Shown piece by piece: positions 18,933 through 39,894 of a DNA stretch of 64,000 bases. Origin of the DNA: Leptolyngbyaceae cyanobacterium (lineage in GTDB: Bacteria > Cyanobacteriota > Cyanobacteriia > Cyanobacteriales > Aerosakkonemataceae); contig DATNQN010000097.1 in NCBI GenBank assembly GCA_036703985.1, forward strand, positions 62,001-126,000, read 5' to 3'. The notes below the pieces were generated by a model, which was not told the DNA's origin, searched no databases, and was given only the letters and a program-made list of their open reading frames with translations. Both the position numbers and the translations under genes were made by a program. Within the stretch, counting starts at the first letter, position 1, and the number at the start of each line of letters is the position of its first letter.

Positions 18933-18969
18933 TTTAAGCTGCCACGCATTTAATTTTAATACTCAGGCT

Positions 18970-19006: not shown

Positions 19007-19080
19007 ATTTACGGTTTTTGCCTAGCACCAGCAATATACAATTTAAATGCGATGCAAGCTTAGTAAATCAGGAGGTTTAG

Positions 19081-19605: not shown

Positions 19606-19633
19606 TTAATCTAAAATCGGTTGACCTAAGCTT

Positions 19634-20365
19634 ATGCGTCCCCTTAGCAATAGCGAAATTATCCAAATTTGGGAACGGGGATTCTCGCAACATCCCTTGA
19701 GACAAGCGATGATTCTGTTAGTAGCTGCTTGTCCGGAGATGAAAGCTGAGGAACTGACGGCTTTAACCCTCGGGCAACGAGATGAGTATTTGTTGCGGTT
19801 GAGAGAATTGACGTTTGGATCGAGGCTTAATGGTTTTGTGCAATGTCCGTCTTGTGGCGATCGCTTAGAGCTTTCCCTCAATACAGCCGATATTCGCGTT
19901 TCCGATCGATCTATCCAACCAGAATATTTTCTGGATCTCGGAGAAATTGAGTTAAGGTTTCGCTTGCTCAATAGTCAAGACTTAGCAGCGATCGCAGGCG
20001 ATCGCGAACCGCTGAAAGCTCGACAAAAACTAGTGCAACGCTGTATCCTGCAAGCGAAACTTAACGGGAAATCGATCGAGCCTGACGAGTTACCGGAAAT
20101 TGCGATCGTCGCACTTGCCCAACACTTGGCAGAATGCGACCCCAATGCAGAAGTATTGCTGAATTTAACTTGTCCGGGTTGCAAACATCAATGGCAAACT
20201 TTATTTGATATTGCCACATTTTTTATTAGCGAAATAGCAGCTTTATCCAAGCGCTTGTTGCGCGAAGTGCATACCTTAGCTAGTGCCTACGGTTGGAGTG
20301 AAGCGGATATTTTAGCGATGACTCACCCGCGCCGACAGTTTTATCTGGAGATGGTGGGAATATGA
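19634..20365 (+). CDS. CIS baseplate/assembly protein, T4 gp26-like with two CxxC pairs
   Basis: The 243-residue protein has two Cys-x2-Cys pairs, VQCPSCGDRLEL near 75-83 and LTCPGCKHQW near 178-184, which together look like a metal-binding ribbon split across the chain. The C-terminal stretch LREVHTLASAYGWSEADILAM is typical of gp26-like small baseplate proteins encoded beside tube genes in injection-system clusters. The family is thought to help nucleate the baseplate around the hub. It is 28 bp downstream of the tube gene, and its stop overlaps the next ATG. The gp26 relation is from pattern memory; the zinc role is inferred. Confidence 0.7.
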   Translation: MRPLSNSEIIQIWERGFSQHPLRQAMILLVAACPEMKAEELTALTLGQRDEYLLRLRELTFGSRLNGFVQCPSCGDRLELSLNTADIRVSDRSIQPEYFLDLGEIELRFRLLNSQDLAAIAGDREPLKARQKLVQRCILQAKLNGKSIEPDELPEIAIVALAQHLAECDPNAEVLLNLTCPGCKHQWQTLFDIATFFISEIAALSKRLLREVHTLASAYGWSEADILAMTHPRRQFYLEMVGI

Positions 20366-24670: not shown

Positions 24671-24681
24671 ACGGGGAATTA

Positions 24682-24942
24682 ATGATGACAAAAAATATCG
24701 AATTACAAATTGAAGAGTTAGTTTTGTTTGGGTTTGCAGCACGCGATCGCGATTTAATCGGCGCAGCAATGCAAGAGGAATTAACGCGATTGTTGATGGA
24801 AAAAGGGTTATCGCCAACATTAGGTCAAGGTGCAGAAATTCCCCGTTTAGATGGGGGTTTATTGGCAGTGCAATCGGGTGCAAAACCCGAAGCAATCGGC
24901 ATTCAAATAGCTCAAAACATTTATGGAGGTTTAAGCAGATGA
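24682..24942 (+). CDS. Small conserved CIS-cluster protein
   Basis: The start at ATG 24682 is chosen because GGGGA stands just upstream; a TTG at 24661 would add seven residues and overlap the ATPase gene. The 86-residue product has two short helical or strand parts: IELQIEELVLFGFAARDRDLIG with EELTRLLMEKGL, then a C-terminal AIGIQIAQNIYGGL. Small proteins with this pattern recur next to the ATPase and DUF4157 genes in injection-system loci, and their function is unknown. Its stop overlaps the next ATG, so translation is coupled to the first DUF4157 gene; a chaperone or loading adaptor is a guess. Confidence 0.75.
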   Translation: MMTKNIELQIEELVLFGFAARDRDLIGAAMQEELTRLLMEKGLSPTLGQGAEIPRLDGGLLAVQSGAKPEAIGIQIAQNIYGGLSR

Positions 24943-25928
24943 GTAAGTGTTTGCGAAGTGCGAATGAAGCCCGATCGCTAAATCAAACCCTACCCTCTGC
25001 TACACCTATTCGCAGCGGATTATTACAACGCAAATGTGCTTGTGGAAATTCGACTAGTTTGACGGGAAAGTGTAGTGAATGCGAGAAAAAACGACTGCCT
25101 TTGCAGCGTCGTCCTACCGATCGAGCCGAAGGTTCTCCAGTAGCGCCGATCGTCCATGAAGTGTTGAATTCGCCAGGTCAACCATTAGACCCAGATACGC
25201 GCATATTCATGGAATCCCGCTTCGGACATGATTTTAGTCAGGTGCGGGTGCATACAGATGCGAAGGCAGCACGATCGGCACAGACAATTCAAGCGTTAGC
25301 ATATACAGTCAAGCCGGATATCGTGTTTGGTTTAGGACAATATGCACCACAGACAATAGAGGGAAGCCGACTGTTAGCACATGAATTAGTACATATAGTG
25401 CAGCAAACAGCCAATTCTCATGCCAATACACCTCAGCCAAAAGAATTTTTTATTAGCAATTCTTCCGATAATTCCGAACGAGTAGCCGACCAAGTTGCTA
25501 ATGAAATCACCCAACCAAAAACTACATCCTACAATCTGCCTTTACGATTACTTCAGACAGGTTTTTCCCCCTATCAAATCCAGCGACAACCGACAGGTAT
25601 AGAAAACAGCAATTCTCTGAATGAAACAGCAGAATCTATTGATAATGAAGGGATGGAAATTGCAGGCGAAGAACTGGGCAAGGGAGATATGGATTTGTCT
25701 TGTCACTATCGTTTAGGTTGTCCTATTTCTGTAGATTGCGAGGGTAAGAGAGCTTGTGGTGTAGCTTCTTGCGGAACGGGAGAATGTAGAAGCTCTTTAT
25801 GTCCGCCAAATTTTAAAAATGTCATTTTCAAAGCATGGTGTCAATATGATTGTCTGCCATCTGGAGCCGCTTTTCTTTTTATTACTAGGTTTGGCAATGT
25901 TATTGTCGGCCCGTTCTGTTTGGATTAG
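24939..25928 (+). CDS. DUF4157 (eCIS core) protein with Cys-rich C-terminus
   Basis: The protein has 329 residues. An N-terminal arm has the pattern LLQRKCACGNSTSLTGKC with CSEC (about 28-48), a probable metal site found in many relatives. The DUF4157 domain (about 65-160) contains SRFGHDFSQVRVHTDAKAA and the metallopeptidase-like HExxH in LLAHELVHIVQQ (His 148, His 152). The last 75 residues hold ten cysteines in a compact domain (CEGKRACGVASCGTGECRS) that I do not recognise. DUF4157 domains mark effectors or cargo-processing factors of contractile injection systems. It probably acts inside or is carried by the particle. It overlaps the preceding gene by 4 bp. Confidence 0.88.
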   Translation: MSKCLRSANEARSLNQTLPSATPIRSGLLQRKCACGNSTSLTGKCSECEKKRLPLQRRPTDRAEGSPVAPIVHEVLNSPGQPLDPDTRIFMESRFGHDFSQVRVHTDAKAARSAQTIQALAYTVKPDIVFGLGQYAPQTIEGSRLLAHELVHIVQQTANSHANTPQPKEFFISNSSDNSERVADQVANEITQPKTTSYNLPLRLLQTGFSPYQIQRQPTGIENSNSLNETAESIDNEGMEIAGEELGKGDMDLSCHYRLGCPISVDCEGKRACGVASCGTGECRSSLCPPNFKNVIFKAWCQYDCLPSGAAFLFITRFGNVIVGPFCLD

Positions 25929-25962
25929 TAATCATTTGTGATTAAGAGGGGGTATTAAGTCA

Positions 25963-26889
25963 ATGAAAACGCGATCGCAATTTCCAATTAAACCCATATC
26001 TAAACCATCTTTAACACCTGGAAAACCCGGATTTATACAACGCAAATGTGCCTGTGGAAATTCAGCTAATTTAACGGGAAAGTGTAACAAATGCCAGAAC
26101 AAAAGGCTGAGTTTGCAGCGTTATTCTACCAATCAAACTAAACCTGATGAAATACCGCCGATCGTGCAGGAAGTTTTGCGATCGTCCGGGCAACCTTTAG
26201 ATGAAAATACCCGTACTTTCATGGAAACGCGCTTTGACTACAATTTTAGACCAGTGCGAGTGCATACAGATTTAAGAGCAGCAGAATCAGCACGAGCAGT
26301 AAATGCACTAGCTTATACAGTCGGAAAAAATATCGTGTTTGCACCAAGGCAATATCAACCAGAGACAAGTTCAGGAAAGCGGCTGTTAGCACACGAATTA
26401 ACACATACCATACAGCAACAGATGGGAAATGTAACCCTTCTCCAGAAGTTCTCTATGACTGATGAGGATGAAGATAGCCTTGAAAAAGAAGCCGAACAAC
26501 TAGCAGATGAAACAGAGATAACAGAATTAAAAGAAAAGCAACCAACATCAAAAATAATTTTGCCCCGAAAAATCTTTACCGATAATTCACGGCGTTGGGT
26601 ATCGCCCAGTCCTGGCTTCCGCGTAAAGAGTGGAAGCGTGGTTGTTGATACGCTACTCAAATACAAGAAATATTATGCAGATAGAACTGCTACTCGCTAC
26701 TATGTGGGAATTTACGGTACTGCCAAAAATGGTGAGGAAATAAATGGCCAAAAAGAATGGGATGTCGGTAAAGAAGGAAAGTCAATATTTAATGTTCCGG
26801 CTGGTCAGTATCAGATAGAAGTTGGTGTTTACAACGGCATAATAGACGATCCTTTTTATTTGGAAGTATCCATTACTTGGCGTTCTTAA
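25963..26889 (+). CDS. Second DUF4157 (eCIS core) protein with beta-rich C-terminus
   Basis: The 308-residue paralogue lies 34 bp after the first. The N-terminal arm is closely similar (IQRKCACGNSANLTGKCNKC), and the DUF4157 domain has ETRFDYNFRPVRVHTD and the HExxH motif in LLAHELTHTIQQ (His 144, His 148). The C-terminal third is unrelated to its neighbour: a strand-rich domain without cysteines (GFRVKSGSVVVDTLLKYKK, GQYQIEVGVYNG, LEVSITW). Shared head and different tails suggest that the head is the system-recognition part and the tails are different activities. ATG 25963 has GGGGG upstream. Target and enzymatic activity are unknown. Confidence 0.86.
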   Translation: MKTRSQFPIKPISKPSLTPGKPGFIQRKCACGNSANLTGKCNKCQNKRLSLQRYSTNQTKPDEIPPIVQEVLRSSGQPLDENTRTFMETRFDYNFRPVRVHTDLRAAESARAVNALAYTVGKNIVFAPRQYQPETSSGKRLLAHELTHTIQQQMGNVTLLQKFSMTDEDEDSLEKEAEQLADETEITELKEKQPTSKIILPRKIFTDNSRRWVSPSPGFRVKSGSVVVDTLLKYKKYYADRTATRYYVGIYGTAKNGEEINGQKEWDVGKEGKSIFNVPAGQYQIEVGVYNGIIDDPFYLEVSITWRS

Positions 26890-26900
26890 AAATATAATTT

Positions 26901-27581
26901 ATGACAACATTTCCCAATTCTCCCCGTTTACTCAAAGGCGCGATCGTCGGAGTTGACCTTTACAACCCCTTAGCCAGCGTCATCGTTTTTCAATACAATC
27001 CCGACACGCTCACCCGCACCCTAATTGCTCAAACCACAGCCAGTGAAAATGCCGACAAAGGTGAGGCTTTGCGCTTGAAAGGGCCACCCAAAGAATCGAT
27101 TAAACTTGATGTGGAAATTGATGCTGCCGACCAATTAGAACAAGCGAAATTTCCGGCTACTTCAATGGGCATTTATCCCACTTTGTCGGCTTTAGAAATG
27201 CTGCTATATCCCAAATCTTTTAAGGTGATTGCTGATGAAATTTTGCTCAATGTCGGCATTGTGGAAATTATCCCTCCCGAAGCGCCGTTAACTTTATTTA
27301 TTTGGGGGGCAAAACGGATCTTGCCCGTGCGGTTAACGCAATTTTCCATTACAGAAGAAGCTTTCGATACCGATCTAAATCCGATTCGCGCCAAAGTAAA
27401 TTTAGATTTGCAAGTTTTGAATTATCAAGATTTCGGATTGCTGAGTTTTGGCGGCTCGCTATTTATGGTGCATCAAATTGTTAAAGAAGTGATGGCAACT
27501 ATTAATAGTGTGGGTAATTTACCATCAGTATCGGCTTCAGCTTCCTTTTCTTTTAGCGCTAATATGAGTATAGGAACTTAA
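26901..27581 (+). CDS. CIS_tube domain protein (tube initiator/hub adaptor, Afp7 N-domain-like)
   Basis: The 226-residue protein has the CIS_tube pattern at its N-terminus: KGAIVGVDLYNPLASVIVFQYNPDTLTRTL, then LKGPPKESIKLDVEIDA and ALEMLLYPK. The domain resembles the tube fold and is placed at the junction between spike hub and first tube ring. In Afp/PVC it is joined to a LysM domain; here the LysM part is a separate gene five bases downstream. There is no clear SD before ATG 26901, only an AT-rich leader of 11 bp after the preceding stop. Confidence 0.9.
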   Translation: MTTFPNSPRLLKGAIVGVDLYNPLASVIVFQYNPDTLTRTLIAQTTASENADKGEALRLKGPPKESIKLDVEIDAADQLEQAKFPATSMGIYPTLSALEMLLYPKSFKVIADEILLNVGIVEIIPPEAPLTLFIWGAKRILPVRLTQFSITEEAFDTDLNPIRAKVNLDLQVLNYQDFGLLSFGGSLFMVHQIVKEVMATINSVGNLPSVSASASFSFSANMSIGT

Positions 27582-27585
27582 AACA

Positions 27586-27888
27586 ATGTTTGCTCCTAAC
27601 AGTCGTTATTACAACATTCCTACTACAACTTTAAAAGTAACGGATAGCGCCGGAATCAATCGGGAAATTCGCTACTTGCGACGACGATTTATTCCTGAAT
27701 CTGAATCGGCTATAACTTTAGTCGAACATTCGGTGATTCAGGGCGATCGCTTAGATAATATCACCGCACGTTATTTAGGCGATCCGACACAATTCTGGCG
27801 GTTATGCGATACCAATAAGGTGTTAAATTCCCAGGAATTAACTGAAGAAATTGGTCGCATAATTAAGATTGCTTTGCCTTTTTCATAA
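27586..27888 (+). CDS. Small LysM-domain CIS hub protein
   Basis: The 100-residue protein contains a LysM-like fold: EHSVIQGDRLDNITARYLGDPTQFWRLCDTN, about residues 47-77. In this context the module is a structural clamp between hub and baseplate, as in T4 gp53 and Afp7, rather than a wall-binding domain, since no signal peptide is present. The N-terminal YLRRRFIPESE segment is typical of the same small proteins in other clusters. AGGAAC lies upstream, and the gene starts five bases after the CIS_tube gene. Confidence 0.85.
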   Translation: MFAPNSRYYNIPTTTLKVTDSAGINREIRYLRRRFIPESESAITLVEHSVIQGDRLDNITARYLGDPTQFWRLCDTNKVLNSQELTEEIGRIIKIALPFS

Positions 27889-27936
27889 CCGAAAATAGCA
27901 TTTTTAAATTCAAAATAAATCCCTATTTTCAACTGC

Positions 27937-29073
27937 ATGGCTATGTTAACCAGCCAACTTGGTATCCGGCTAATTTTATGGATGGGCAAAACTGTGGCGA
28001 CACCTGCCCCTTACGAAGTGATGACTTCTATTACTAACGTTGAGGTCACAAACGACTCGGAAAATAGTGATGGTTTTCAGATATCATTCACTTTAGGTAA
28101 AGATAAAGCCAGAGATTACAGTTTATTGCAAAGTGGTATCCTAAACCCGTTTACGCGAGTAATAATTGGCGTATTGTTAGGGGCAATACCAGAAGTATTA
28201 ATTGATGGAGTAATTACCCACCATCAAATTATGCCTAGCAACGAACCGGGGATGTCTATTCTCGCGGTGATGGGAAGAGATATCGGCTTAATGTTGGACT
28301 TGGAAGATAATAACGAACAATTTAAAAATCAACCTGATTTTTTGATTGTTACTCGGCTGCTTTCCCAACCTAAATACGTTCAATACGGTTTAATTCCTCC
28401 GTTCCAAATTACACCGACAACAGATGTTCCGATTGAGTTGCAGCGGGTGCCGCGTCAGTGGGAAAGCGATCGCAAATTCATTGAAAGGTTAGCTAACCGT
28501 AATGGGTTTGTTTTCTACATAGAACCGCTGACTTTTAACGTTAATACAGCTTATTGGGGGCCAGAAAATCGCTTGGGAATTCCCCAACCAGCTTTAACTA
28601 CGAACATGGGATCTCATACCAACGTCACATCTTTGGACTTTTCCCATGATGCCCTAGCACCCGTAAGTACTGAAGGTAGCTTTGTCGAACCGATAACCAA
28701 ACTCAGTATTCCCATTCCCTCTCTACCTTCGTTACGCATCCCGCCTTTAGCAGCAACAGCAACACCAGCCAAGCGCAAAGTTCAACTACGGAACACGGCT
28801 AATCAAAATCCCGCCCAAGCTGCCCAAACTGCGGTATCAACAGTTACTAAAACTGCCGAACCTGTCAAAGCTGAAGGCGAACTGGATACGGTTCGCTACG
28901 GTGCAATTTTACGGGCGCGGAAATTAGTCGGGGTGAGGGGTGTGGGGCTAACTTATGACGGCAACTACTATGTGCGTCGGGTGACTCACAAAATCAAACC
29001 GGGTGAATACAAGCAGCAATTTACACTCAGTAGGGAAGGTACGGGTACGCTTTTGCCAGTGGTACGACCATGA
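27937..29073 (+). CDS. CIS spike hub protein, phage late control gpD-like
   Basis: The 378-residue protein resembles the gpD/VgrG hub. The N-terminal barrel begins with TNVEVTNDSENSDGFQISFT; FTRVIIGVLLGAIPEVLIDG, a second barrel and RQWESDRKFIERLANRNGF follow, all typical of the family. It should trimerise to connect the tube to the spike. A polar Ala/Thr/Pro linker (about 285-315) separates the core from a C-terminal part (VRYGAILRARKLVGVRGVG). In Afp8/VgrG hub and spike are one chain; here the spike (gpV-like) is the next gene, overlapping by 4 bp. The start at ATG 27937 lacks a clear SD. Confidence 0.88.
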   Translation: MAMLTSQLGIRLILWMGKTVATPAPYEVMTSITNVEVTNDSENSDGFQISFTLGKDKARDYSLLQSGILNPFTRVIIGVLLGAIPEVLIDGVITHHQIMPSNEPGMSILAVMGRDIGLMLDLEDNNEQFKNQPDFLIVTRLLSQPKYVQYGLIPPFQITPTTDVPIELQRVPRQWESDRKFIERLANRNGFVFYIEPLTFNVNTAYWGPENRLGIPQPALTTNMGSHTNVTSLDFSHDALAPVSTEGSFVEPITKLSIPIPSLPSLRIPPLAATATPAKRKVQLRNTANQNPAQAAQTAVSTVTKTAEPVKAEGELDTVRYGAILRARKLVGVRGVGLTYDGNYYVRRVTHKIKPGEYKQQFTLSREGTGTLLPVVRP

Positions 29074-29576
29074 ACAACAATGGTACTTTTTACGGAAAAT
29101 ATCGCGGCACTGTCACCGACAACAAAGACCCGTTGATGATGGGGCGAATTAAAGCAAAAGTCCCTGACGTGATGGGTGACTTGGAAAGTGGTTGGGCGAT
29201 GCCTTGTGCGCCTTTTGGCGGTAACGGGATGGGCTTCTTTGCCTTGCCAGGAGAGGGGGCGGGAGTTTGGATTGAATTTGAACGCGGCGATCCTGATTAT
29301 CCAATTTGGTCGGGATGCTGGTGGGGTTCTGTGGCAGAAGTGCCGCCCGTGTTGCTGGCACCTCCTTATAAGAAGTTGATGTTGAAAACGGAAGGCGGTC
29401 ATACGATCGTCCTCGATGATACGCCGGGAGTTGGAGGCATCACCATCGAAACTTCTACGGGACAAAAGATTTCACTGAAAGCAACGGGTATCGAAATTGA
29501 CAACGGACTAGGAGGCAGCATTAAACTAACTGGGCCGCAAGTATCGATTAATAATGGGGCGCTGGAGGTAACTTAA
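29070..29576 (+). CDS. CIS central spike protein, gpV/gp5-like
   Basis: The 168-residue protein has an N-terminal OB-fold (YGKYRGTVTDNKDPLMMGRIKAKVPD, then GVWIEFERGDPDYPIWSGCWWG), the standard start of baseplate assembly protein V. A repetitive beta region follows (GHTIVLDDTPG, GITIETSTGQKISLKATGIEIDNG), which should form the triangular needle. Trimers puncture the target membrane and carry the PAAR tip. It overlaps the hub gene by 4 bp, and the PAAR-like gene starts one base after its stop. Its short length fits a needle without effector extension. Confidence 0.92.
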   Translation: MNNNGTFYGKYRGTVTDNKDPLMMGRIKAKVPDVMGDLESGWAMPCAPFGGNGMGFFALPGEGAGVWIEFERGDPDYPIWSGCWWGSVAEVPPVLLAPPYKKLMLKTEGGHTIVLDDTPGVGGITIETSTGQKISLKATGIEIDNGLGGSIKLTGPQVSINNGALEVT

Positions 29577-29577
29577 A

Positions 29578-29901
29578 ATGCCTGGATTTCTCCTGCATCA
29601 AGGGGCAACGGTGTTGTGCAGTCATGGGGGACAAGCCCAACCAGTTGTACCAAATCCTAGAGTAAAAGTGAGCGGACAACCGATCGTAACGCAAGCTGGT
29701 ATTTATACGGTGGCGGGTTGTAGCTTTCCGCCACCTCCGGCAGCAAATGGCCCTTGCGTAACCGCTCAGTGGGTGATGGGGGCGACGCGAGTTCGGGCTG
29801 GGGGAGTGCCTGTTTTATTGCAAGATTCGCAAGCTATTTGTGCGCCTACGGGTACTCCTTTAACGATCGCTTTAACTCAGGTGCGCGTTCGGGGAATGTA
29901 A
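29578..29901 (+). CDS. PAAR-like spike tip protein
   Basis: The 107-residue protein belongs by pattern to the PAAR-like/DUF4280 group: FLLHQGATVLCSHGGQAQ at the N-terminus, VKVSGQPIVTQAG, and a C-terminal RVRAGGVPVLLQDSQAI. One His and three Cys in LCSHGG, AGCSF and NGPC could bind a metal at the tip, as in known PAAR cones. It should cap the spike trimer made by the gene immediately upstream. It has no toxin extension. Confidence 0.85.
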   Translation: MPGFLLHQGATVLCSHGGQAQPVVPNPRVKVSGQPIVTQAGIYTVAGCSFPPPPAANGPCVTAQWVMGATRVRAGGVPVLLQDSQAICAPTGTPLTIALTQVRVRGM

Positions 29902-29990
29902 ATATTTCTTCTTTGTGGTTCAAATTATTAAAACGCAAAGGATGAGAAGAAATAAAAAGAGGATACAGCTATTATTAAGGGGTTTAAAAA

Positions 29991-30350
29991 ATGAATATAG
30001 ATTATCCTTTTCATTTTGATATTCGCGGGCGAACTGCCGATACTAATGGGGATGAACATATTCGGGATTTAATCGAGCAAGTGCTCTTTACTTCTCCCGG
30101 AGAAAGGGTAAATCGTCCTACGTTTGGTAGTGGGGTTTTGCAGTTAATTTTTGCTCCGAATAATGATGCTTTGGCGGCGGCTGGTCAACTCACGATTCAA
30201 GGGGCTTTGCAACAGTGGTTGGGAGATTTGATTTTAGTGGAAGCGGTGAATGTTCAAAGTGAGGATGCAGCGTTGCGGGTGGTCGTTCAATACATTGTTC
30301 GGAAGTCTCAACAACGACAAGTGGCAAGTTTTTCTAGGGGTGGGTTTTAG
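29991..30350 (+). CDS. Baseplate wedge protein gp25
   Basis: The 119-residue protein shows the gp25/GPW pattern: FHFDIRGRTADTNGDEHIRD, the hallmark VLFTSPGERVNRPTFGSGV, and QGALQQWLGDLILVEAV. The family contacts the first sheath ring and triggers contraction. AGGGG lies upstream of ATG 29991. It is 89 bp after the PAAR-like gene, the largest gap in this part of the operon, with no stem-loop noticed, and 4 bp before the start of the first baseplate-J gene. Confidence 0.95.
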   Translation: MNIDYPFHFDIRGRTADTNGDEHIRDLIEQVLFTSPGERVNRPTFGSGVLQLIFAPNNDALAAAGQLTIQGALQQWLGDLILVEAVNVQSEDAALRVVVQYIVRKSQQRQVASFSRGGF

Positions 30351-30354
30351 ATAT

Positions 30355-32883
30355 ATGAATAACGATCGGTTATCAATTCCCAAAATAGTTTATTTTTGTA
30401 GTGATGATATTCATCGTCGGCAATTAGTAGAGAATCATCCGACTTTGAATGGTATTGATTTTTTAGAAGTCGATTCATCTCAGACTAAACTAGAGGTTCA
30501 TTTTCTGAAAAGTTTAGATTTGGATAAATTAACGGCGGCGAATTTGCGAATTGAAGGGGGCGATCGCATTCGGGAGATTACCGTCAATGCCGAACCTATT
30601 GTTAACGATAAGGTGCTTACGGTGTCGGTGAATAAATCGGGGGATTTTTCTATTTATACGTTGCGTTTAGTTACTGATGAAATAGATTTGCACCGTTTAG
30701 ATAATTTTGATTTAATTTTAAGAGCAGTCGATTTTTCTTTTAAAGTTAATTGCCCGACTGACTTGGATTGTTGCTCGGAAAATCTCTGTCCGCCGGAACC
30801 GCAACCCCAACCAGAAATTAATTATTTGGCAAAAGATTATGCGAGTTTTCGGCAATTAATTCTCGATCGCCTTGCCTTAATTATGCCGCAGTGGAAAGAG
30901 CGCAATCCCGCAGATTTGGGGATAACTTTGGTGGAACTGTTGGCTTATGTGGGGGATTATTTAAGTTATCAACAAGATGCGATCGCAACTGAAGCTTATT
31001 TAAGTACCGCCCGTCGTCGCATCTCGGTACGCCGTCACGCACGATTGGTAGATTATTGGATGCACAACGGTTGCACTGCAAGAGTTTGGGTACAATTCCA
31101 AGTTAATGCTGAGGTTGTATTGCTGAAACGAGGAACGAAGTTATTAACACCGATTCCGAAACAAGTTTCTCCAATTCTGTCTGATTTTGTTTACCAAGAA
31201 GCATTATCAGTGCAACCAGAAGTATTTGAAACGATGCACGACAGTTTGCTGTTTTCCGCACACAATGACTTACACTTTTACACTTGGGAAAATCGAGAAT
31301 GCTGTCTGCCAAAAGGGGCGATTCGCGCCACTTTATGCGACTCGACAAATAACCGCTTGCGTTTGTGTGTTGGCGATATTTTAATTTTAGAAGAACGTTA
31401 CGATCCGAAAACTGGAATTGATATTAATGCAAATTTAACCCATCGTCATGCGGTGCGGCTGACTAAGGTGTATCCAGAAGCAACGCGCTTGCTGCAAGAG
31501 GGTCGAGAAATTGGCAGAACGGCTGCACCTTCGGTATTCGATCCGCTGACGGGTCAACCGATCGTTCAAATTGAATGGGATACAGAAGACGCGCTTCCCT
31601 TTCCCTTGTGCATTTCGGCTGAGAAAGAAAATGGGGAATATTTCGAGGTTAGCTTGGCTTTGGGGAATATCGTCCTAGCAGATCGGGGGCGAACCCTGGA
31701 AACAGCGGAAATATTGGGTAAAGTTCCCGAATCTCAACTTTTGCGAGTTGCTACAGTCAGCCAAAAAAGTTGCTGTGAGGATGTTTCGCCAAAACGAGTT
31801 CCGCCCCGCTTTTACCCGCACTTAAAAGAAGCACCTTTAACTTACGCCGATCCTTATCAACCGACGGCTTCAGCCTTTCGCACGATGCAGCCATCTCCGC
31901 AAAGGGCGTTACCCGCGATCGCATTGACGAGTCAACTGAACGGCAAAACCTTTTCTTGGACACCCCAGCGAGATTTACTCAATAGTAGACCGGATAGCCT
32001 TGATTTTGTGGTGGAAGTGGAAGCGGATGGTCGGGCTTACTTGCGTTTTGGCAATGGGGAACAGGGTTATCGTCCGCCGTCAGACACCGAATTTCGGGCG
32101 GTTTATCGAGTTGGCAATGGTGGGGCGGGGCAAATTGGGGCTGATGCGATCGCGCACGCTGTCAGTAACGATCCGAACATCGTGGCTGCGGTTCTCCGAG
32201 TGCGTAACCCGCTACCTGCTTTTGGGGGAGTGGAACCGGAAACGATGGAAGATGTGCGGCAAAAAGCACCTGCGGCTTTTCGCACTCAGGAACGGGCGGT
32301 TACGCCGGAAGATTATGCCACCGTTGCACAACGCTATCCCCAAATTCAAAAAGCGGCGGCGACGTTTCGCTGGACGGGTAGCTGGTACACGGTTTTCGTC
32401 ACGGCGGATCGGTTGGGTGGTTTGCCAGTGGATGCAACGTTTGAAAATAATTTGCGATCGCATTTAGAAAAATATCGCATGGCAGGTCATGACTTAGAAA
32501 TTGATGCGCCGCGTTTCGTTTCTTTAGCTGTGGAAATGCAGGTTTGTGTCAAATCTAATTATTTCCGCAGTCATGTTAAATCTGCTTTGTTAGAACTGTT
32601 TAGTAATCGCTTACTTGCTGACGGACGCAAAGGTGTATTTCATCCCGATAATTTTACTTTCGGACAGCCTGTTTATCTCAGTCGATTGTATGAAGCAGCG
32701 CTGACAGTTGCCGGGGTAAAATTTGTGACGATTACTCAATTTGAACGCCAGGGAACGCCCAGTCAAGAAGCTTTGGAAAAGGGATTTTTGCAGTTAGGGC
32801 GGTTAGAAATTGCTCGGTTAGATAACGATCCGAATTTTCCAGAACGCGGTATTTTTCAGTTAAGAATGGAGGGGGGAAAATGA
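30355..32883 (+). CDS. Baseplate J-like wedge protein 1 (Afp11/gp6-like)
   Basis: The start is set at ATG 30355 (MNNDRLSIPK), giving 842 residues; the open frame continues upstream into the gp25 gene without a better site. The region near EINYLAKDYASFRQLILDRL and ADLGITLVELLAYVGDYLSYQQD (about 155-210) is the typical N-terminal part of large CIS baseplate proteins. YLRFGNGEQGYRPP and RTQERAVTPEDYATVAQRYP (about 560-670) are the baseplate-J core. Dimers of such proteins form the wedges around the hub. The first 150 residues are an extra beta-rich domain (VHFLKSLDLDKLTAANLRI). Its stop overlaps the second J gene's start. Confidence 0.92.
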   Translation: MNNDRLSIPKIVYFCSDDIHRRQLVENHPTLNGIDFLEVDSSQTKLEVHFLKSLDLDKLTAANLRIEGGDRIREITVNAEPIVNDKVLTVSVNKSGDFSIYTLRLVTDEIDLHRLDNFDLILRAVDFSFKVNCPTDLDCCSENLCPPEPQPQPEINYLAKDYASFRQLILDRLALIMPQWKERNPADLGITLVELLAYVGDYLSYQQDAIATEAYLSTARRRISVRRHARLVDYWMHNGCTARVWVQFQVNAEVVLLKRGTKLLTPIPKQVSPILSDFVYQEALSVQPEVFETMHDSLLFSAHNDLHFYTWENRECCLPKGAIRATLCDSTNNRLRLCVGDILILEERYDPKTGIDINANLTHRHAVRLTKVYPEATRLLQEGREIGRTAAPSVFDPLTGQPIVQIEWDTEDALPFPLCISAEKENGEYFEVSLALGNIVLADRGRTLETAEILGKVPESQLLRVATVSQKSCCEDVSPKRVPPRFYPHLKEAPLTYADPYQPTASAFRTMQPSPQRALPAIALTSQLNGKTFSWTPQRDLLNSRPDSLDFVVEVEADGRAYLRFGNGEQGYRPPSDTEFRAVYRVGNGGAGQIGADAIAHAVSNDPNIVAAVLRVRNPLPAFGGVEPETMEDVRQKAPAAFRTQERAVTPEDYATVAQRYPQIQKAAATFRWTGSWYTVFVTADRLGGLPVDATFENNLRSHLEKYRMAGHDLEIDAPRFVSLAVEMQVCVKSNYFRSHVKSALLELFSNRLLADGRKGVFHPDNFTFGQPVYLSRLYEAALTVAGVKFVTITQFERQGTPSQEALEKGFLQLGRLEIARLDNDPNFPERGIFQLRMEGGK

Positions 32884-35594
32884 GTTTACCGCTCGATTCT
32901 AGTTTGGGGAAATTAAATGATTGTGGTTGTTGTACGGGACTGACAGCGATGACTCCGCTAGAGGTGGAAAATCGCCCCGGTCAAAATGCGATCGCTTATC
33001 GAGTTGGCACTCATTCCCAATTCAAACAAAGCTTACTTAGCCATTTATCAAACAGCCAATTTCCTCAATTACAAAACTTGCGAACTAGAGAAGATGACGA
33101 TTTTACGATCGCGCTTTTCGATGGGTGGGCAACGGTGGCTGATGTGCTGACTTTTTATCAAGAAAGAATCGCCAATGAAAGTTATTTACGCACGGCAACG
33201 GAGAGGGTTTCGCTGCTGAATTTAGCGCGATTAATTGGCTACGAATTGCGATCGGGTGTGGCTGCTAATGCTTATTTAGCTTTTGAGTTAGAAACTGCCC
33301 CAGGTACGCCGGAACAAGTAACGATCGATCTTGGTACGAAAGTCCAAAGTCTGCCGCTTCCCGGCGAACAAGTGCAGATATTTGAAACAGTGGAAAAGAT
33401 TGCCGCCAAGCCGGAATGGAATGGGATTAAACCTCGGTTGACTAAACGGCATCCGCTTCCAAAAGATGTGAATTGGCTTTTTTTGGCTGGAATATCCACC
33501 GGATTAAAACCGGGCGATCCGTTATTAATTCAACCCGATCCAGATAGTGAAGGAGAAAGTCAACCTGTTTTCTGTGAAGTTTTGGCGGTGATTCCGCAAC
33601 CGGAAAACAATCGAACCAAGGTTGAATTAAACCGCTTTTCGGAAATTGCGCTCTACCCGGTAAAAGTAAGCGTAATTCCGCCTAAAATCTTATTGCCTCG
33701 CAGTCAGTTAGCACGAACTTTTGATCGCCAAAAAGTTAGCGCCGCCGAATTGCGTGCTTTGGCGCGAAAATGGCATTTTCATCTACCCTCAATTGCTAAC
33801 AATTTTGCCGCAACCGAACCGCCATCTCCTGGGGTGCTAACATTTCGAGTGCGAGCTTCTATCTTCGGTCATAATGCTCCTAAATGGCAGAATTTACCTT
33901 ATATTCAGCGGGTTGGGGAAAAAGTTTCGATTAAAGCTGCAAATGGCACGATTAAAGATGATGTAGTACCGGGAATTTATAAAGATCGCCAATATTCTTG
34001 GGCAGAAAATACCCTCGATAAGTATCACGAAGCAGAAGATAATACTATATATCTCGACAATGTTTATTCCAGCATTGTCAAAGATAGTTATGTGGTTTTC
34101 AAAGCCGGGAGTAAATGGAAATTACATCAAGTTGCCGCAGCTACAGATGTTTCTCGATCGGATTTCACCTTAACAGCTAAAGTAACTAGTTTAACGCTGA
34201 AAAATGCTGAGGCTTTCTCTCAATTTTCCATTCGCAAAACTACAGTTTTTGCTCAAAATGAAGAATTGAAATTAGCACCAATGCCGATCGAGACAGAAGT
34301 ATCGGGCGCACAAATTGACTTGCACGATGTTATAGAAACTTTATGGAAAGGACAACCAATTATTATCTGCGGTGAATTGAATGAAAATCGCGGTAATCAG
34401 GGATGCGAATTCGCCAAAATTATTGATGTTATACACAATTTTGGGGAGGAAAGTTACACGCAAATTATCTTAGAGAACAATCTCGATCGGAGTTACGTTC
34501 GCGACACGGTAACAATTTATGCCAATGTTGCTCTGGCTACACACGGCGAAACTAAAACCGAGGTGTTAGGTAATGGCGATGGAAGTCAAAGTTATCAGCG
34601 TTTTATGTTGCGTCAATCGCCTTTAACTTACGTGAGTGCGGCAAATTCTAGCGGTGCAACCTCAACTTTACAGGTGCGGGTTAACGATATTTTATGGCAT
34701 GAGGTAGCAACTCTGTACGGACATCGCCCAAGCGATCGCATTTACGTTACCCGCACTGACGACGATGGCAAAACTACCATTCAGTTTGGCGATGGGGAAA
34801 TCGGCGCACGTCTTCCCAGCGGACAGGAAAATATCAAAGCTACCTATCGTCAAGGTATTGGTTTGTCGGGAATGGTGCAAGCGGGACAATTAAATTTGCT
34901 GATGACTCGTCCTTTGGGAGTGAAAGGGGTGAAAAATCCCCTACCAGCTACCCTGGCGCAAAATCCAGAATCCTCTGAGGAAGCGCGACGCAACGCCACT
35001 TTGAACATTATGACGCTCGATCGCATTGTTTCGCTGTCAGATTACGAAGATTTTGCCCGGGCATTTTCTGGTATTGCAAAGGCGTTGGCTACTTGGGTTT
35101 GGATCGGTGAAAAAAGAGGCATTTTTGTTACCCTTGCGGGATATAACGGGGAAATCGTGCCAGAGGATAGTCTTGTTTCTCAAAATCTGCTGGAAGCGAT
35201 GCGAAAAGCTGGCGATCCTTTTATTCCGTTAGTGGTGAAATCTTTTGTACCGATATCTTTCGGAATTGCTGCGAAAGTAAAGGTGGATTCAGATTACATT
35301 CGAGAAAAAGTGTTAGCGGATGTTCGGACTTCTTTATTGTCTTATTTTTCCTTTGAAAATCGAGATTTGGGTCAACCTGTAACGAAGAGTGAAGCGATCG
35401 CATTTATCCAGTCTATACCGGGAGTGGTAGCTGTGGATTTAGATAAGCTTTATCGCTTCGATCGATCTGAAATTTTAAATGATTTTTTGCTGGCTACCGT
35501 ACCGGAAATGGGGGCGGGGGGTGCGTTAATTCCTGCTGATTTGTTAACGCTGGATGATGATTTTTTGAGTTTGGGTGAGTTGGCGGAGTTTTGA
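32880..35594 (+). CDS. Baseplate J-like wedge protein 2 (Afp12-like)
   Basis: The 904-residue paralogue starts in ATGA overlap with the first J protein. It carries CCTGLTAMTPLEVENRPGQNA near the start, IALFDGWATVADVLTFYQERIANESYL near 75-100, and the J-core signatures IQFGDGEIGARLPSGQENI and IVSLSDYEDFARAFSGIAKA near 640-735. The middle (300-600) is a long strand-rich insertion. It should pair with the first J protein in each wedge. The gene is followed by a short T-run and a tandem 10-bp repeat, so this may be the end of one co-translated block. Confidence 0.93.
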   Translation: MSLPLDSSLGKLNDCGCCTGLTAMTPLEVENRPGQNAIAYRVGTHSQFKQSLLSHLSNSQFPQLQNLRTREDDDFTIALFDGWATVADVLTFYQERIANESYLRTATERVSLLNLARLIGYELRSGVAANAYLAFELETAPGTPEQVTIDLGTKVQSLPLPGEQVQIFETVEKIAAKPEWNGIKPRLTKRHPLPKDVNWLFLAGISTGLKPGDPLLIQPDPDSEGESQPVFCEVLAVIPQPENNRTKVELNRFSEIALYPVKVSVIPPKILLPRSQLARTFDRQKVSAAELRALARKWHFHLPSIANNFAATEPPSPGVLTFRVRASIFGHNAPKWQNLPYIQRVGEKVSIKAANGTIKDDVVPGIYKDRQYSWAENTLDKYHEAEDNTIYLDNVYSSIVKDSYVVFKAGSKWKLHQVAAATDVSRSDFTLTAKVTSLTLKNAEAFSQFSIRKTTVFAQNEELKLAPMPIETEVSGAQIDLHDVIETLWKGQPIIICGELNENRGNQGCEFAKIIDVIHNFGEESYTQIILENNLDRSYVRDTVTIYANVALATHGETKTEVLGNGDGSQSYQRFMLRQSPLTYVSAANSSGATSTLQVRVNDILWHEVATLYGHRPSDRIYVTRTDDDGKTTIQFGDGEIGARLPSGQENIKATYRQGIGLSGMVQAGQLNLLMTRPLGVKGVKNPLPATLAQNPESSEEARRNATLNIMTLDRIVSLSDYEDFARAFSGIAKALATWVWIGEKRGIFVTLAGYNGEIVPEDSLVSQNLLEAMRKAGDPFIPLVVKSFVPISFGIAAKVKVDSDYIREKVLADVRTSLLSYFSFENRDLGQPVTKSEAIAFIQSIPGVVAVDLDKLYRFDRSEILNDFLLATVPEMGAGGALIPADLLTLDDDFLSLGELAEF

Positions 35595-35643: not shown

Positions 35644-35679
35644 GTAAGAGATGGTTTTATTGTGGGGGACGCAAATTAT

Positions 35680-37734
35680 ATGAGTTTTGATGCGGAAACG
35701 TTGTACAATTTGTTGCCAGCGATTTACCGAATTAGAGATGGAGAACGGGGTAAACCGCTGTTTGATTTAATTTCTGCGATCGCTAGAGAAGTGGGAGTTT
35801 TGGAAGAGGATTTAGCCCAACTTTACGATGATTTGTTTATTGAAACTTGTGCTGATTGGGTGATTCCTTATATTGGGGATTTAGTTGGCGATCGCGCTTT
35901 GTACAAAATTGCTAATTCCTCGACTACAACTGCAAATCGCACTACTCCCCGCGCTGTGGTTGCGAATACGATCGCCTATCGACGGCGTAAAGGTACTGCT
36001 TCTATTTTGGAACAGTTAGCGCGAGATGTTACGGGATGGGATGCGCGAGTTGTGGAGTTTTTCCAACTCCTCGCAACTACACAATATATGAATCATTTAC
36101 GTCCCGATCGTCGCCCTTGGTTGGATTTGCGAAATCGGGAATATTTAGAAAATTTAAATACGGCTTTTGAAAGAATTCCTCATACAATTGATGTCCGGCG
36201 CATTGCCAGTCAAAGAGGGAAATATAACATTCCTAATATCGGCATATTTCTTTGGCGTTTGGGTAGTTATTCGCTGACCAATTCTCAGGCTTTTAAGTTA
36301 AGCGATCGGCGATATTTATTTAATACTTTGGGTCATAATACGCAGCTATTTAATAAACCGGAAACCGAACCAGAAATTACCCACATTGCCGAACCAATAA
36401 ATATTGCTATGCCGATTAATCGTTACTTATTAAATCGGTATTTATCCGACTATTACGGCAAAGATAAAAGTATCTTAATTATTCGAGATTGTTTAGAAAT
36501 TCCCCTTGATGAAATCATCGTTTGCGATTTGTCTGACAAAAACAATAGCGAATGGAAACACCAACCTCAAAATAAAGTAGCGATCGATCCCGTATTAGGA
36601 AGAATTGCCTTTCCCGAAACTCAACCGCCGCCCCAAATTGTTTACGTTATCTATCACTATGGATTCAGCGCCCCAATGGGCGGAGGCGAGTATAGTAGAG
36701 TTCATACATTCAATGAAAAATTGCCTTTAATTGTCAAAGTTCCTTTCCAATTTGGAACAGTTCAACTAGCCCTTGATGAACTAAATAGAAATATCCAAAT
36801 TGCCGAAAATGATTCGGGAATTGTGGAAATTGGCAATAGCGATACTTACCCAGAAACTCCAGTAATTAATATTCCCGATCGTAAACAGATTGAAATTCGC
36901 GCCGCTGATAAATGCCGTCCTCATTTAATTTTAAACAGCGACTTGCTCATCTTCGGTAAAGAGGAATCAGAATTAACTATTAACGGTTTATTAATTAGCG
37001 GTGGCAGCTTAAAAATCCCGCAAAAAGACCTTGAAAATAACATTAATCAACTAAAGCGTTTGCGGTTAGTTCACTGTACTTTAGTTCCCGGCTTAACCGT
37101 AACTACTGACGGTACGCCACAACATCCAGAATCGCCAAGTTTAATTATCGATCGCGCTGATATCATTGTCGAAATTGAATCTTGTATTTTAGGCGGTTTG
37201 CGAGTAGATAAAAATGCAGAAGTCAAAATTAGTAATAGTATTGTAGACGCAACTTCTGACAGCGAATTTGCTTATACTGCCCTTGACAAAACAGCCGCAG
37301 GTGGTTCTTTAACTATCAAAAATTCTACTATTATCGGTCAAGTGCATACAGTGGAGATGCCTTTAGCTTCTAACACTATTTTTGGCTCGGAATTAGCTAA
37401 ACCTGTTTTAGTAGAAAAACAACAATTAGGATGCGTGCGCTTTTGTTATTTGAACTTAAATTATTTAGTTCCTCCCCGCTATAATTGTCAGCCTAAAACT
37501 ACAGAAGATGCCGCACTTATCTATCCCCAATTTACCTCTACTCGTTATGGCGATGCGGCTTATTACCAGTTAAGTCAACGTTGTGCGATCGAGATTCGTC
37601 AGGGCGCAGACGATCGATCGGAAATGGGAGCATTTCATGATTTATATCAAGCTCAAAGAGAAACTAATTTGCGCGTCCGCTTAGATGAGTATTTGCGCTT
37701 TGGTTTAGAAGCGGGAATTTTGTATGTAACTTAA
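35680..37734 (+). CDS. CIS tail protein I-like with beta-helix-like C-terminal half
   Basis: ATG 35680 (MSFDAETLYNLLPAIYRIRD) has GGGGGA about ten bases upstream and is preferred to a GTG at 35662; the product has 684 residues. The first 170 residues match the tail-I/baseplate group: LFDLISAIAREVGVLEEDL, DWVIPYIGDLVGD, and AYRRRKGTASILEQLARDVTGW. The rest is unlike a small phage tail protein. From about 370 on there is a ladder of strands (IEIRAADKCRPHLILNSDLLI, ELTINGLLISGGSL, SCILGGLRVDKNAEVKISNS, GGSLTIKNSTIIGQV) that suggests a right-handed beta-helix, which could serve as fibre or attachment surface. Confidence 0.85.
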   Translation: MSFDAETLYNLLPAIYRIRDGERGKPLFDLISAIAREVGVLEEDLAQLYDDLFIETCADWVIPYIGDLVGDRALYKIANSSTTTANRTTPRAVVANTIAYRRRKGTASILEQLARDVTGWDARVVEFFQLLATTQYMNHLRPDRRPWLDLRNREYLENLNTAFERIPHTIDVRRIASQRGKYNIPNIGIFLWRLGSYSLTNSQAFKLSDRRYLFNTLGHNTQLFNKPETEPEITHIAEPINIAMPINRYLLNRYLSDYYGKDKSILIIRDCLEIPLDEIIVCDLSDKNNSEWKHQPQNKVAIDPVLGRIAFPETQPPPQIVYVIYHYGFSAPMGGGEYSRVHTFNEKLPLIVKVPFQFGTVQLALDELNRNIQIAENDSGIVEIGNSDTYPETPVINIPDRKQIEIRAADKCRPHLILNSDLLIFGKEESELTINGLLISGGSLKIPQKDLENNINQLKRLRLVHCTLVPGLTVTTDGTPQHPESPSLIIDRADIIVEIESCILGGLRVDKNAEVKISNSIVDATSDSEFAYTALDKTAAGGSLTIKNSTIIGQVHTVEMPLASNTIFGSELAKPVLVEKQQLGCVRFCYLNLNYLVPPRYNCQPKTTEDAALIYPQFTSTRYGDAAYYQLSQRCAIEIRQGADDRSEMGAFHDLYQAQRETNLRVRLDEYLRFGLEAGILYVT

Positions 37735-37758: not shown

Positions 37759-39894
37759 ATGAAAGGCGATTTTAGCAGACAAACTTTCGATTCTAAAAAA
37801 CATTACACTGCTGTACTCATGCAGCAAGGAAGAGTACAAGTAGATGCTGATTGGAACGAACAACAAGCGATTAATCAGTACCAAATTACCACCGAAACTA
37901 AAGATTTAATTGGTAAATGTGGAGTTCCCCAAACTAGCGACGGTTTCCAAATCACCCTTAACGACGATAAAAGCGATTTAATCATTTCCCCCGGACGGAT
38001 TTACGTAGATGGAATATTGACTGAACTAGAAACATCTAGCTTAATTTCGATTACTTTTCCACCCAATACCACCAATGAAGTAAAAGTAGAAAGCTTAATT
38101 GTCGATCATCGAGAATTGCAGCCTTATCAATGGGTGCAACTTTCAGCGAATGAAATTGATTGGCACAGTTTTCGGATTAGTGAAGTAAAGCCAGAGCAAC
38201 AAACTATCATTTTAAATGCTGATTTGTCTAGTTACAATACTGCAACCAAATTGCGCCGCTTTATAACTTATACAACACAGCCCGATTATCCAAATCCTGA
38301 ATTTATTACCGAAACTAATCCACCTCAACTAAAGTTAGAAAATGCCAATTATCTGATTTATCTTGATGTTTGGCAACGACACATTACTGCGATCGACGAT
38401 CGCCATATCCGAGAAACAGTATTAGGCGATGCCGATACTGCTACTCGTTCTCAAACCGTTTGGCAGGTGAAAATTGCCAAAAAAGAAGGAGAAATAACTT
38501 GCGATACGCCGCTAGATTTCCCGGTGAGTACGGGAAGTTTGAACGTGCGAACAAAACCTGCCAAAAAACCAACCGACCTTTGCAAAATTACCCCTAATAA
38601 TGGTTATCAAGGATCGGAAAATCAACTTTACCGTGTAGAAATTCACGATTCGGGAATCCTGGGAACGGCTACTTTTAAATGGTCGAAAGATAATGGTTCT
38701 ATTGTTACCAAAATTGAGAAGTTTGATAATAAACAATTGACTGTTAATTCAGTGGGTCGCGATGAAGTTCTGGGATTTGCTGATAAACAGTGGGTGGAAA
38801 TTGTTAGCGATCGCACGGAGTTGCACAATAAAATCGGAGAATTCACTCAGATCGATCGCGTTAATCCCACCACCCGCTTAATTACCCTAACTACAACACC
38901 GACACCGATCGACCCGCAATGGAATCCTCAACTGCGACGGTGGGATAACTCAGGCTTAATCAAAGTCGAACAACCAAGCGAAAATGACGGTTGGATTATT
39001 CTAGAAAATGACATCGAAATTAAATTTTCTCCAGGTAATTATCAAACAGGCGATTACTGGCTGATTCCCGCCCGCGCTACCGCAGTCGGGGACATCGAAT
39101 GGTCGCGCGATCGAGCTAATAATTCGCAACCTCAACCCCCATATACTATTCAACATCACTATTGCTGCCTAGCCTTACTTAATTGGCAAACCAAAAAGGT
39201 GAAAGATTGCCGACATCTTTTCTCACCAATGACTCAGTTAATTAGCTTCTTTTTCCTGGGTGGAGATGGTCAGGAAACAATGCCCGGTGAAGAATTGCCT
39301 CAACCACTCCAAGTCGGTGTTGCTAATGGTTTGTCTCCAATTAAAGCCGCAACTATTAGATTCAAAATTAAACTGGGCAACGGTTCTTTATCCACTCAAA
39401 AAGGTGTTTTTACTTCTAATTTATCAGAAGTTTCTGTTCAAACTGATGACAACGGAGTAGCTACTTGCTACTGGAAATTAGATGGCGATAAGCCCAGCCA
39501 ACAAGTAATTGCCGAATTAGTCGATGAAAAAGATCGGCGGCTACACTTACCGATTTACTTTACTGCCAATCTCAGTTATCCATACCCCACGCCATCGAAT
39601 GAATTAAATCATAATGCTTTGGGATTAGCTTTGGGCGGAGTGTTAGGTTTATATATGTTTTTCAGTTGTTTATTATGGGTGTGGTGTAGTTCGATCGGTG
39701 AGCGATCGACTTTTTTACGAAACATTTTCTGTTGTAGTGTTTGTACGCCGAATTTGAGAGTTTGCGATGTTAACTTATTGACTTGCTTCTGGCGATTTTT
39801 CCTTGGTTTGTTCCTCGGTTACTTAACTGGTTGGTTAATCGCAACTCTGTACAACAGTTATATTAGAAATTTCCAAAAACAAGCCACTTTCTAA
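37759..39894 (+). CDS. DUF6519 CIS protein ending in two transmembrane helices
   Basis: The 711-residue protein opens with MKGDFSRQTFDSKKHYTAVL and QGRVQVDADWNEQQAI, the DUF6519 start known from injection-system clusters. A long strand-rich body follows, including an Ig-like domain at about 505-605 (ATIRFKIKLGNGSLS, VQTDDNGVATCYWKLDG). The C-terminal 95 residues are strikingly hydrophobic. One helix lies at about 620-645 (LALGGVLGLYMFFSCLLWVW). A Cys-rich loop follows (NIFCCSVCTPNLRVCD), then a second helix at about 676-699 (WRFFLGLFLGYLTGWLIATL). It is the last gene of the operon, with AAGGGAG before the ATG. Extracellular CIS proteins do not normally carry membrane helices, so this is a good candidate for the membrane anchor. 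Confidence 0.87.
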   Translation: MKGDFSRQTFDSKKHYTAVLMQQGRVQVDADWNEQQAINQYQITTETKDLIGKCGVPQTSDGFQITLNDDKSDLIISPGRIYVDGILTELETSSLISITFPPNTTNEVKVESLIVDHRELQPYQWVQLSANEIDWHSFRISEVKPEQQTIILNADLSSYNTATKLRRFITYTTQPDYPNPEFITETNPPQLKLENANYLIYLDVWQRHITAIDDRHIRETVLGDADTATRSQTVWQVKIAKKEGEITCDTPLDFPVSTGSLNVRTKPAKKPTDLCKITPNNGYQGSENQLYRVEIHDSGILGTATFKWSKDNGSIVTKIEKFDNKQLTVNSVGRDEVLGFADKQWVEIVSDRTELHNKIGEFTQIDRVNPTTRLITLTTTPTPIDPQWNPQLRRWDNSGLIKVEQPSENDGWIILENDIEIKFSPGNYQTGDYWLIPARATAVGDIEWSRDRANNSQPQPPYTIQHHYCCLALLNWQTKKVKDCRHLFSPMTQLISFFFLGGDGQETMPGEELPQPLQVGVANGLSPIKAATIRFKIKLGNGSLSTQKGVFTSNLSEVSVQTDDNGVATCYWKLDGDKPSQQVIAELVDEKDRRLHLPIYFTANLSYPYPTPSNELNHNALGLALGGVLGLYMFFSCLLWVWCSSIGERSTFLRNIFCCSVCTPNLRVCDVNLLTCFWRFFLGLFLGYLTGWLIATLYNSYIRNFQKQATF

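What the first reader, a model, noticed from the sequence alone, without database searches (positions are those of the whole stretch)
39595..39894. Baseplate-side DUF6519 protein ends in two membrane helices with a Cys-rich loop
The last 95 residues contain two strongly hydrophobic stretches separated by a loop with CCSVC and CDV. The body is a normal soluble CIS protein with an Ig-like domain. This is a direct candidate for the part that fixes the machine in a membrane, and the cysteines could form disulphides or bind metal to lock or release it.
Basis: partly seen in the sequence, partly recalled or inferred. Interest (0 to 1): 0.8.

Follow-up and report, generated by a model that had tools for sequence, protein, structure and literature searches.

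The report
Injection-machine fibre with membrane hairpin tail
In one cyanobacterium, a fibre protein of a phage-tail-like injection machine ends in two membrane-spanning helices where related fibres carry other tips, which suggests that this machine is held in a membrane of its own cell.

Summary
Observation confirmed. The gene 37759-39894 (711 aa) encodes a DUF6519 (eBAP5) fibre protein, an intimin-like Ig domain, and a 99-residue tail: two very hydrophobic helices (619-647, 673-702) around a Cys-rich loop. Octanol scores are 13.5 and 13.6; the best in 18 other cluster proteins is 6.85. The tail keeps the operon's codon usage, and each helix carries GxxxGxxxG.

The tail is an orphan: only the own genome matches convincingly among 388 of the order, and 1 of 57 complete DUF6519 frames (its own) has such an end. 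Microseira wollei, same family, has the same operon (54-90% identity over 17 matched genes), but its 1190-aa fibre has a beta-helix and no membrane segment. The sheath resembles haloarchaeal and Streptomyces CIS more than the Anabaena thylakoid CIS.

Best reading: the fibre tip was exchanged for a membrane hairpin that fixes the baseplate in a membrane of the producing cell. That would work like Anabaena Cis13, on another scaffold and machine lineage. Localisation, topology and the role of the cysteines are untested, and the tail is known from one genome. A second CIS in this genome carries a CisA-like protein instead.

The parts
37759..39894 (+). DUF6519 (eBAP5) fibre gene, 711 aa
   Evidence: PF20129 E 5.6e-66; last gene of the CIS cluster
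37759..39249 (+). DUF6519 domain, about residues 1-497
   Evidence: Pfam stretches up to residue 497; alignment A1 of 36 sequences
39232..39582 (+). intimin-like Ig domain, residues 492-608
   Evidence: VIA-align Z 11.8 to intimin; related stretches in other DUF6519 proteins, 27-45% identity
39613..39699 (+). first membrane helix, residues 619-647, GxxxGxxxG at G622/G626/G630
39700..39774 (+). Cys-rich loop, residues 648-672, with CCSVC and CDV
39775..39864 (+). second membrane helix, residues 673-702 (model helix runs to 710), GxxxGxxxG at G683/G687/G691
35662..37734 (+). 690-aa protein at the place of a fibre adaptor, upstream neighbour of the fibre gene
   Evidence: position only; no Pfam, NCBIfam or PHROGs family; orthologue in Microseira 66%
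30250..35594 (+). two baseplate J-type proteins (877 and 904 aa)
   Evidence: TIGR02243; the second matches Streptomyces 9GTP, E 5e-5
17361..30350 (+). rest of the CIS cluster: sheath, tube, T4_baseplate-type protein, Pvc16, AAA ATPase, two eCIS_core proteins, CIS_tube, VgrG-related protein (weak), base V, DUF4280, gp25
   Evidence: Pfam and NCBIfam; sheath compared with solved structures

Best explanation
The protein is a DUF6519 (eBAP5) fibre of a contractile injection system related to the Streptomyces and haloarchaeal ones. In place of a receptor-binding tip it carries a two-helix membrane hairpin, so that the fibre holds the baseplate against a membrane of the producing cell (thylakoid or cytoplasmic). 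Shown: domain order, two strong hydrophobic helices, coding character of the tail, place at the end of the baseplate genes, absence of the tail from the relatives examined. Inferred: the N-terminal domain binds the baseplate; the hairpin inserts from the cytoplasm with both ends inside and the Cys loop in the lumen or periplasm; the glycine motifs pack the helices; several fibres per baseplate make a ring of anchors; firing goes through that membrane or after the cell is disrupted, as proposed for the Anabaena machine.
For: Octanol scores twice those of any other cluster protein. Model with two long helices. Coding statistics of the tail. GxxxGxxxG in both helices, shuffle P 0.028 and 0.009. 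Same operon in Microseira with a beta-helix fibre and no segment >=7.5 from sheath to fibre. No CisA-like gene in this cluster, while the second CIS of the genome has one. Precedent: Cis13 of Anabaena, 9 of 14 machines free-floating without its membrane helix (PMC8894136). [quoted passage not shown]
Against: The tail is known from one genome and has no homologue, so no conservation can be tested. The closest relative does without it. Charges give no clear topology: N flank -1, loop +1, C-terminal end +2. Helices are modelled at moderate confidence, as a monomer. The tail DNA is T-rich, which favours hydrophobic residues. No localisation data.
Confidence: 0.58

Rival explanations
1. Target-side tip: the particle is released on lysis and the hairpin inserts into the membrane of a target cell or vesicle, as the receptor-binding part.
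For: DUF6519 fibres are described as target-binding (PMC12923769); the Microseira relative has a beta-helix end of that kind.
Against: Two strongly hydrophobic helices would be expected to enter a membrane of the producing cell when they are made; this is inference from general knowledge of membrane proteins.
Confidence: 0.15
2. Accident or decay: the fibre gene lost its tip and reads into unrelated T-rich DNA that happens to encode hydrophobic residues, without function.
For: Orphan tail in one genome; T-rich DNA; fibre ends vary greatly among relatives.
Against: 99 codons without stop (81 of 40000 shuffles) and operon-like synonymous codons (133 of 40000 shuffles reach the score); no sign of a continued Microseira-like frame behind the junction.
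Confidence: 0.17
3. The helices are not membrane-spanning but pack against each other or against another part of the fibre trimer or baseplate as a buried hydrophobic bundle.
For: Model confidence of the helices is moderate and comes from a monomer.
Against: Stretches almost free of charge, twice as hydrophobic as the best segment in 18 other proteins of the same machine.
Confidence: 0.1

Closest known systems
Cis13 of the Anabaena PCC 7120 thylakoid CIS (PMC8894136, passages)
   Same: Fibre-type protein bound to the baseplate by its N-terminal part, with a C-terminal membrane segment instead of a binding tip; cyanobacterium
   Different: Cis13 has one predicted membrane helix (residues 122-154) in a short trimeric protein; here a two-helix hairpin on a DUF6519 and Ig scaffold. 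The sheath of the window scores 144 bits with the Anabaena one and 250-263 with Streptomyces and haloarchaeal ones. No sequence comparison with Cis13 itself was made.
eBAP5 (DUF6519) tail fibres of eCIS (PMC12923769, passages)
   Same: Same N-terminal domain, same Ig/macroglobulin-like shaft type
   Different: Described ends are beta-helix, lectin or hemagglutinin folds; the passages seen mention no membrane hairpin
CisA of Streptomyces coelicolor (PMC12237407, passages)
   Same: Membrane protein gene just downstream of the baseplate genes of a CIS with a related sheath
   Different: Separate bitopic protein with unstructured N-terminus and PBP-like C-terminus, not found in purified particles; the window protein is a fibre scaffold with a hairpin. 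A CisA-like architecture occurs in the other CIS of this genome
Hbor_38620 of the haloarchaeal T6SS-like CIS (PMC11566945, passages)
   Same: Putative membrane anchor of a CIS whose sheath (9EZM) is the top match of the window's sheath
   Different: Separate protein with six predicted helices and a cytoplasmic domain, encoded upstream of the core cluster

Membership tests
DUF6519 / eBAP5 tail-fibre proteins | DUF6519 domain at the N-terminus | tested here: met
   PF20129, 223.8 bits against a cut-off of 22.4
DUF6519 / eBAP5 tail-fibre proteins | Encoded next to the baseplate genes of a CIS cluster | tested here: met
   Follows gp25, two TIGR02243 proteins and the 690-aa protein
DUF6519 / eBAP5 tail-fibre proteins | Ig/macroglobulin-like shaft (frequent) | tested here: met
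   Residues 492-608, Z 11.8 to intimin; relatives in other DUF6519 proteins
DUF6519 / eBAP5 tail-fibre proteins | Receptor-binding C-terminal region (beta-helix, lectin and the like) | tested here: not met
   Behind the Ig domain only the hairpin follows; no Pfam family over its cut-off
DUF6519 / eBAP5 tail-fibre proteins | Binds the baseplate as a trimer | not testable with these tools
   Only monomer models can be made here
Anabaena-type thylakoid CIS | Core proteins closest to the Anabaena machine | tested here: not met
   Sheath 144 bits with 7B5H against 250-263 with 8BL4, 8BKY and 9EZM; the 904-aa protein matches only 9GTP at E <= 0.1
Anabaena-type thylakoid CIS | Cis19 crown and Cis12 extension | tested here: inconclusive
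   No 7B5H chain appears for the fibre or the 904-aa protein by sequence or in the rows listed by fold, which does not exclude a distant relation
Anabaena-type thylakoid CIS | Position in the thylakoid membrane | not testable with these tools
   Needs cryoET
Streptomyces-type cytoplasmic CIS (type IId) | Sheath and baseplate proteins related to the Streptomyces ones | tested here: met
   8BKY 260 bits, 8BL4 250 bits; 9GTP for the 904-aa protein. The haloarchaeal 9EZM scores as high (263 bits)
Streptomyces-type cytoplasmic CIS (type IId) | CisA-like membrane protein in the cluster | tested here: not met
   A search with the C-terminal half of the CisA-like protein finds contigs 67 and 29 of the genome, not contig 97. 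CisA itself was found in 75 of 120 actinomycete genomes, so it is not universal
Integral membrane protein | Two hydrophobic helices long enough to span a membrane | tested here: met
   Octanol 13.5 and 13.6; model helices of 29 and 38 residues
Integral membrane protein | Localises to a membrane | not testable with these tools
   Needs an experiment

The most novel reading that the evidence does not exclude
A target-binding fibre was turned into the machine's own membrane anchor by a tip swap, and the Cys loop on the far side of the membrane (CCSVC and CDV, with further Cys at both helix ends) acts as a redox latch: disulphides made or broken under light or oxidative stress change the hold on the baseplate and set off firing, which would give a phototroph a self-directed, redox-triggered injection machine.
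Probability: 0.08. Interest if true: 0.82.

Novelty: new variant of a known kind. Interest (0 to 1): 0.5.

Why it matters
How contractile injection systems change between free, released and membrane-fixed modes is open. Here two related operons of one family differ conspicuously at the fibre end: beta-helix in Microseira, membrane hairpin in the window. If the hairpin anchors, it is one more independent answer to the anchoring problem beside Cis13, CisA and Hbor_38620, and it would show that exchanging a fibre end can change the mode of a whole machine. A single deletion would test it.

Tried and rejected
Tail from another gene: no convincing protein match in 60 relatives or 388 genomes of the order, none in plasmids; only one Pfam match far under its cut-off (ATP-synt_I, E 0.07) and no PHROGs match. 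In one search there were 12 weak matches besides the own genome (E 1.5e-4 to 0.0095); 10 of these 12 contain stops. The best (G229, L065) is a charged, non-hydrophobic frame; the other stop-free one (G510, E 0.0095, 58 aligned residues) was not inspected. DNA search of the own genome gave only short matches (18-31 bases) besides the tail itself.

A separate two-helix gene as source: Microseira has a 106-aa protein with two hydrophobic stretches about 1.1 kb behind the fibre gene, but tblastn of the tail gave no match in that locus. Frameshift out of a Microseira-like fibre: tblastn of the Microseira protein on the window stops at its residue 498; behind that, only two short matches (E 2.2 and 7.5) appear, neither of them in the tail. 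Viral contigs: 33 pattern matches, none confirmed. The 21 plasmid records with a DUF6519 match were listed, but their C-termini were not examined.

Fold search of the whole model: Foldseek hits with TM-scores of the query at most 0.14 in the rows listed; by VIA the listed rows are mostly the Ig domain. The tail alone was not folded. The tree is the quick one; the careful search did not finish.

A single strong hydrophobic segment (13.6-14.8) also occurs in 3 of the 57 complete DUF6519 frames (L166, L167, L169) and in L168, which fell outside that count by E-value, but in the middle of 1232-1259-aa proteins, inside a beta-helix-like region. The 57 are distinct by their last 60 residues; they include the window's own and three short broken frames (148, 184, 287 aa). 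28 open-ended frames were left out of the count.

Full report
What is there. The ORF 37759-39894 encodes 711 aa. PF20129 (DUF6519) matches it in three stretches up to residue 497, E 5.6e-66. Residues 492-608 form an Ig-like domain close to intimin (Z 11.8, rmsd 2.2, 99 aligned residues). The last 99 residues hold two hydrophobic helices and a Cys-rich loop. The gene closes a CIS cluster that runs from the sheath (17361) to the fibre (39894) and contains tube, T4_baseplate-type, Pvc16, AAA, two eCIS_core, CIS_tube, base V, DUF4280, gp25 and two TIGR02243 proteins. The own genome has 7.68 Mb in 151 contigs. The same-family genome G386 is Microseira wollei NIES-4236 or identical there: its contig 61 has the length of NZ_BLAY01000061.1 (51684) and the fibre gene at the same position.

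Is it more than chance. The octanol scores of the two segments, 13.6 and 13.5, are twice the best 19-mer of the other 18 proteins of the cluster, 6.85. On the Kyte-Doolittle scale the contrast is weaker; one other cluster protein reaches 2.25. Two segments >=13 occur in 3 of 10000 whole-protein shuffles, two >=10 in 58 of 4000, and two >=13 in 123 of 20000 shuffles of the tail residues. Because the tail DNA is T-rich, which favours hydrophobic residues, I tested it against 40000 dinucleotide shuffles: 81 lack stops, 5 lack stops and have two segments >=10, 159 reach two >=13 once stops are removed, and 133 reach the synonymous-codon score. The tail's codon score is above that of 47 of 62 windows of the operon. 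Both helices carry GxxxGxxxG (shuffle P 0.028 and 0.009). The tail is most likely a real coding segment.

How common. PF20129 was found in 8 of 386 genomes of the phylum (7 over the cut-off) and in 33 of 388 of the order; the sets overlap. 47 named loci came from the GTDB contigs. Among 57 complete distinct DUF6519 frames the window's alone has two strong segments at the C-terminus; the best segment in the last 120 residues of any other scores 7.4. The tail matches, at E below 1e-5, only its own genome among 388 of the order and among 60 relatives, and no plasmid record.

The natural comparison. Of the 19 window genes from 16910 to 39894, 17 have a match in the Microseira cluster, in the same order, at 54-90% identity. 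The two DUF6519 bodies are sisters with SH-aLRT 100 in a quick tree of 61 rows. The Microseira fibre has 1190 aa, a right-handed beta-helix and no membrane segment, and no protein from sheath to fibre there has a segment of 7.5 or more. Identity ends at residue 498. The window has instead an Ig domain of a kind found in the same place in Chloroflexia, Rhodothermaceae, another cyanobacterium (G382), a Methanothrix MAG, actinomycetes and proteobacteria (27-45% identity), then the orphan hairpin. Which state is older cannot be said.

What machine. The sheath scores 263 bits with the haloarchaeal 9EZM, 260 and 250 with 8BKY and 8BL4 of Streptomyces, 144 with All3325 of Anabaena. The 904-aa protein matches only 9GTP of Streptomyces at E <= 0.1. 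The entries were tied to their papers by passages. This is therefore not the Anabaena lineage, although it may act in a similar way.

Mechanism. In the passages read of PMC12923769 DUF6519 is a likely baseplate-attachment domain of fibres, perhaps held by the Tail_P2_I-type protein; the 690-aa gene stands at that place here, but no family names it. In Anabaena the fibre-like Cis13 carries a C-terminal membrane helix, and without it 9 of 14 machines float free (PMC8894136). I infer that the hairpin does this job here. Charges give no clear topology. If the N-terminus is inside, the Cys loop lies in the lumen or periplasm; disulphides or metal binding remain speculation.

Rivals. A target-side membrane tip, an accidental tail and a buried helix bundle are not excluded. 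The first is less likely because such a hairpin should enter a membrane of its producer, the second because of the coding statistics, the third because of the extreme hydrophobicity. Occurrence in one genome is the main weakness.

A contrast in the same genome. A second CIS cluster, on contig 67, has a sheath closer still to Streptomyces (408 bits) and encodes an 822-aa protein with one membrane segment (422-440) and a C-terminal PBP-like domain (PF12849, 27.2 bits at a cut-off of 27; a relative in G008 reaches 42.9). This is the order described for CisA (membrane segment, then substrate-binding-like domain), except that its N-terminal part looks weakly kinase-like (Pkinase E 0.0024). With a threshold chosen after seeing the list (E <= 1e-18), 16 of 60 relatives have a homologue, all 16 among the 22 of 60 with Pvc16_N; in 9 of the 16 it lies within 25 kb of a Pvc16_N match. 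The frames retrieved for all 16, some cut at the locus start, have a segment of Kyte-Doolittle 1.83 or more. No CisA sequence was compared, so the likeness is one of architecture. The window cluster has no such gene. The two machines of one cell thus seem to use different membrane parts.

Literature. Searches with membrane-anchor and related terms and for DUF6519 listed no paper that, in what I saw, describes a hairpin on a DUF6519 fibre. I saw passages, not whole texts, of PMC8894136, PMC12923769, PMC12237407, PMC10066040, PMC11566945 and PMC12998442 (the first also in outline); other papers only as listings. Only the open library was searched.

Noticed in passing
L125:9877-12345 (-), contig 67 of the same genome, outside the window: Second CIS cluster with an 822-aa protein: weakly kinase-like N-terminal part, one membrane segment, C-terminal PBP-like domain, an architecture like CisA of Streptomyces. 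Homologues at E <= 1e-18 in 16 of 60 relatives, all among the 22 with Pvc16_N.
   Followed up: partly
L166, L167, L168, L169 (DUF6519 proteins of 1232-1259 aa, near residue 634-663): One conserved, very hydrophobic stretch (octanol 13.6-14.8 in the three that were scored) inside a beta-helix-like region of four cyanobacterial DUF6519 proteins; possibly a membrane-inserting finger.
   Followed up: partly
40172-43759 and 44028-47579: Two WD40 proteins directly behind the CIS cluster, each with one membrane segment between the N-terminal part (AAA_35 in the second) and the WD40 repeats.
   Followed up: no
24939-25928: eCIS_core protein with 10 Cys in a 75-residue window and a moderately hydrophobic C-terminus.
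   Followed up: no
L127:12091-15285 (-), genome G416: Patatin/DUF3376 protein of 1064 aa that ends in two strong hydrophobic segments, a few kb from a DUF6519-type CIS cluster; possibly unrelated to it.
   Followed up: no
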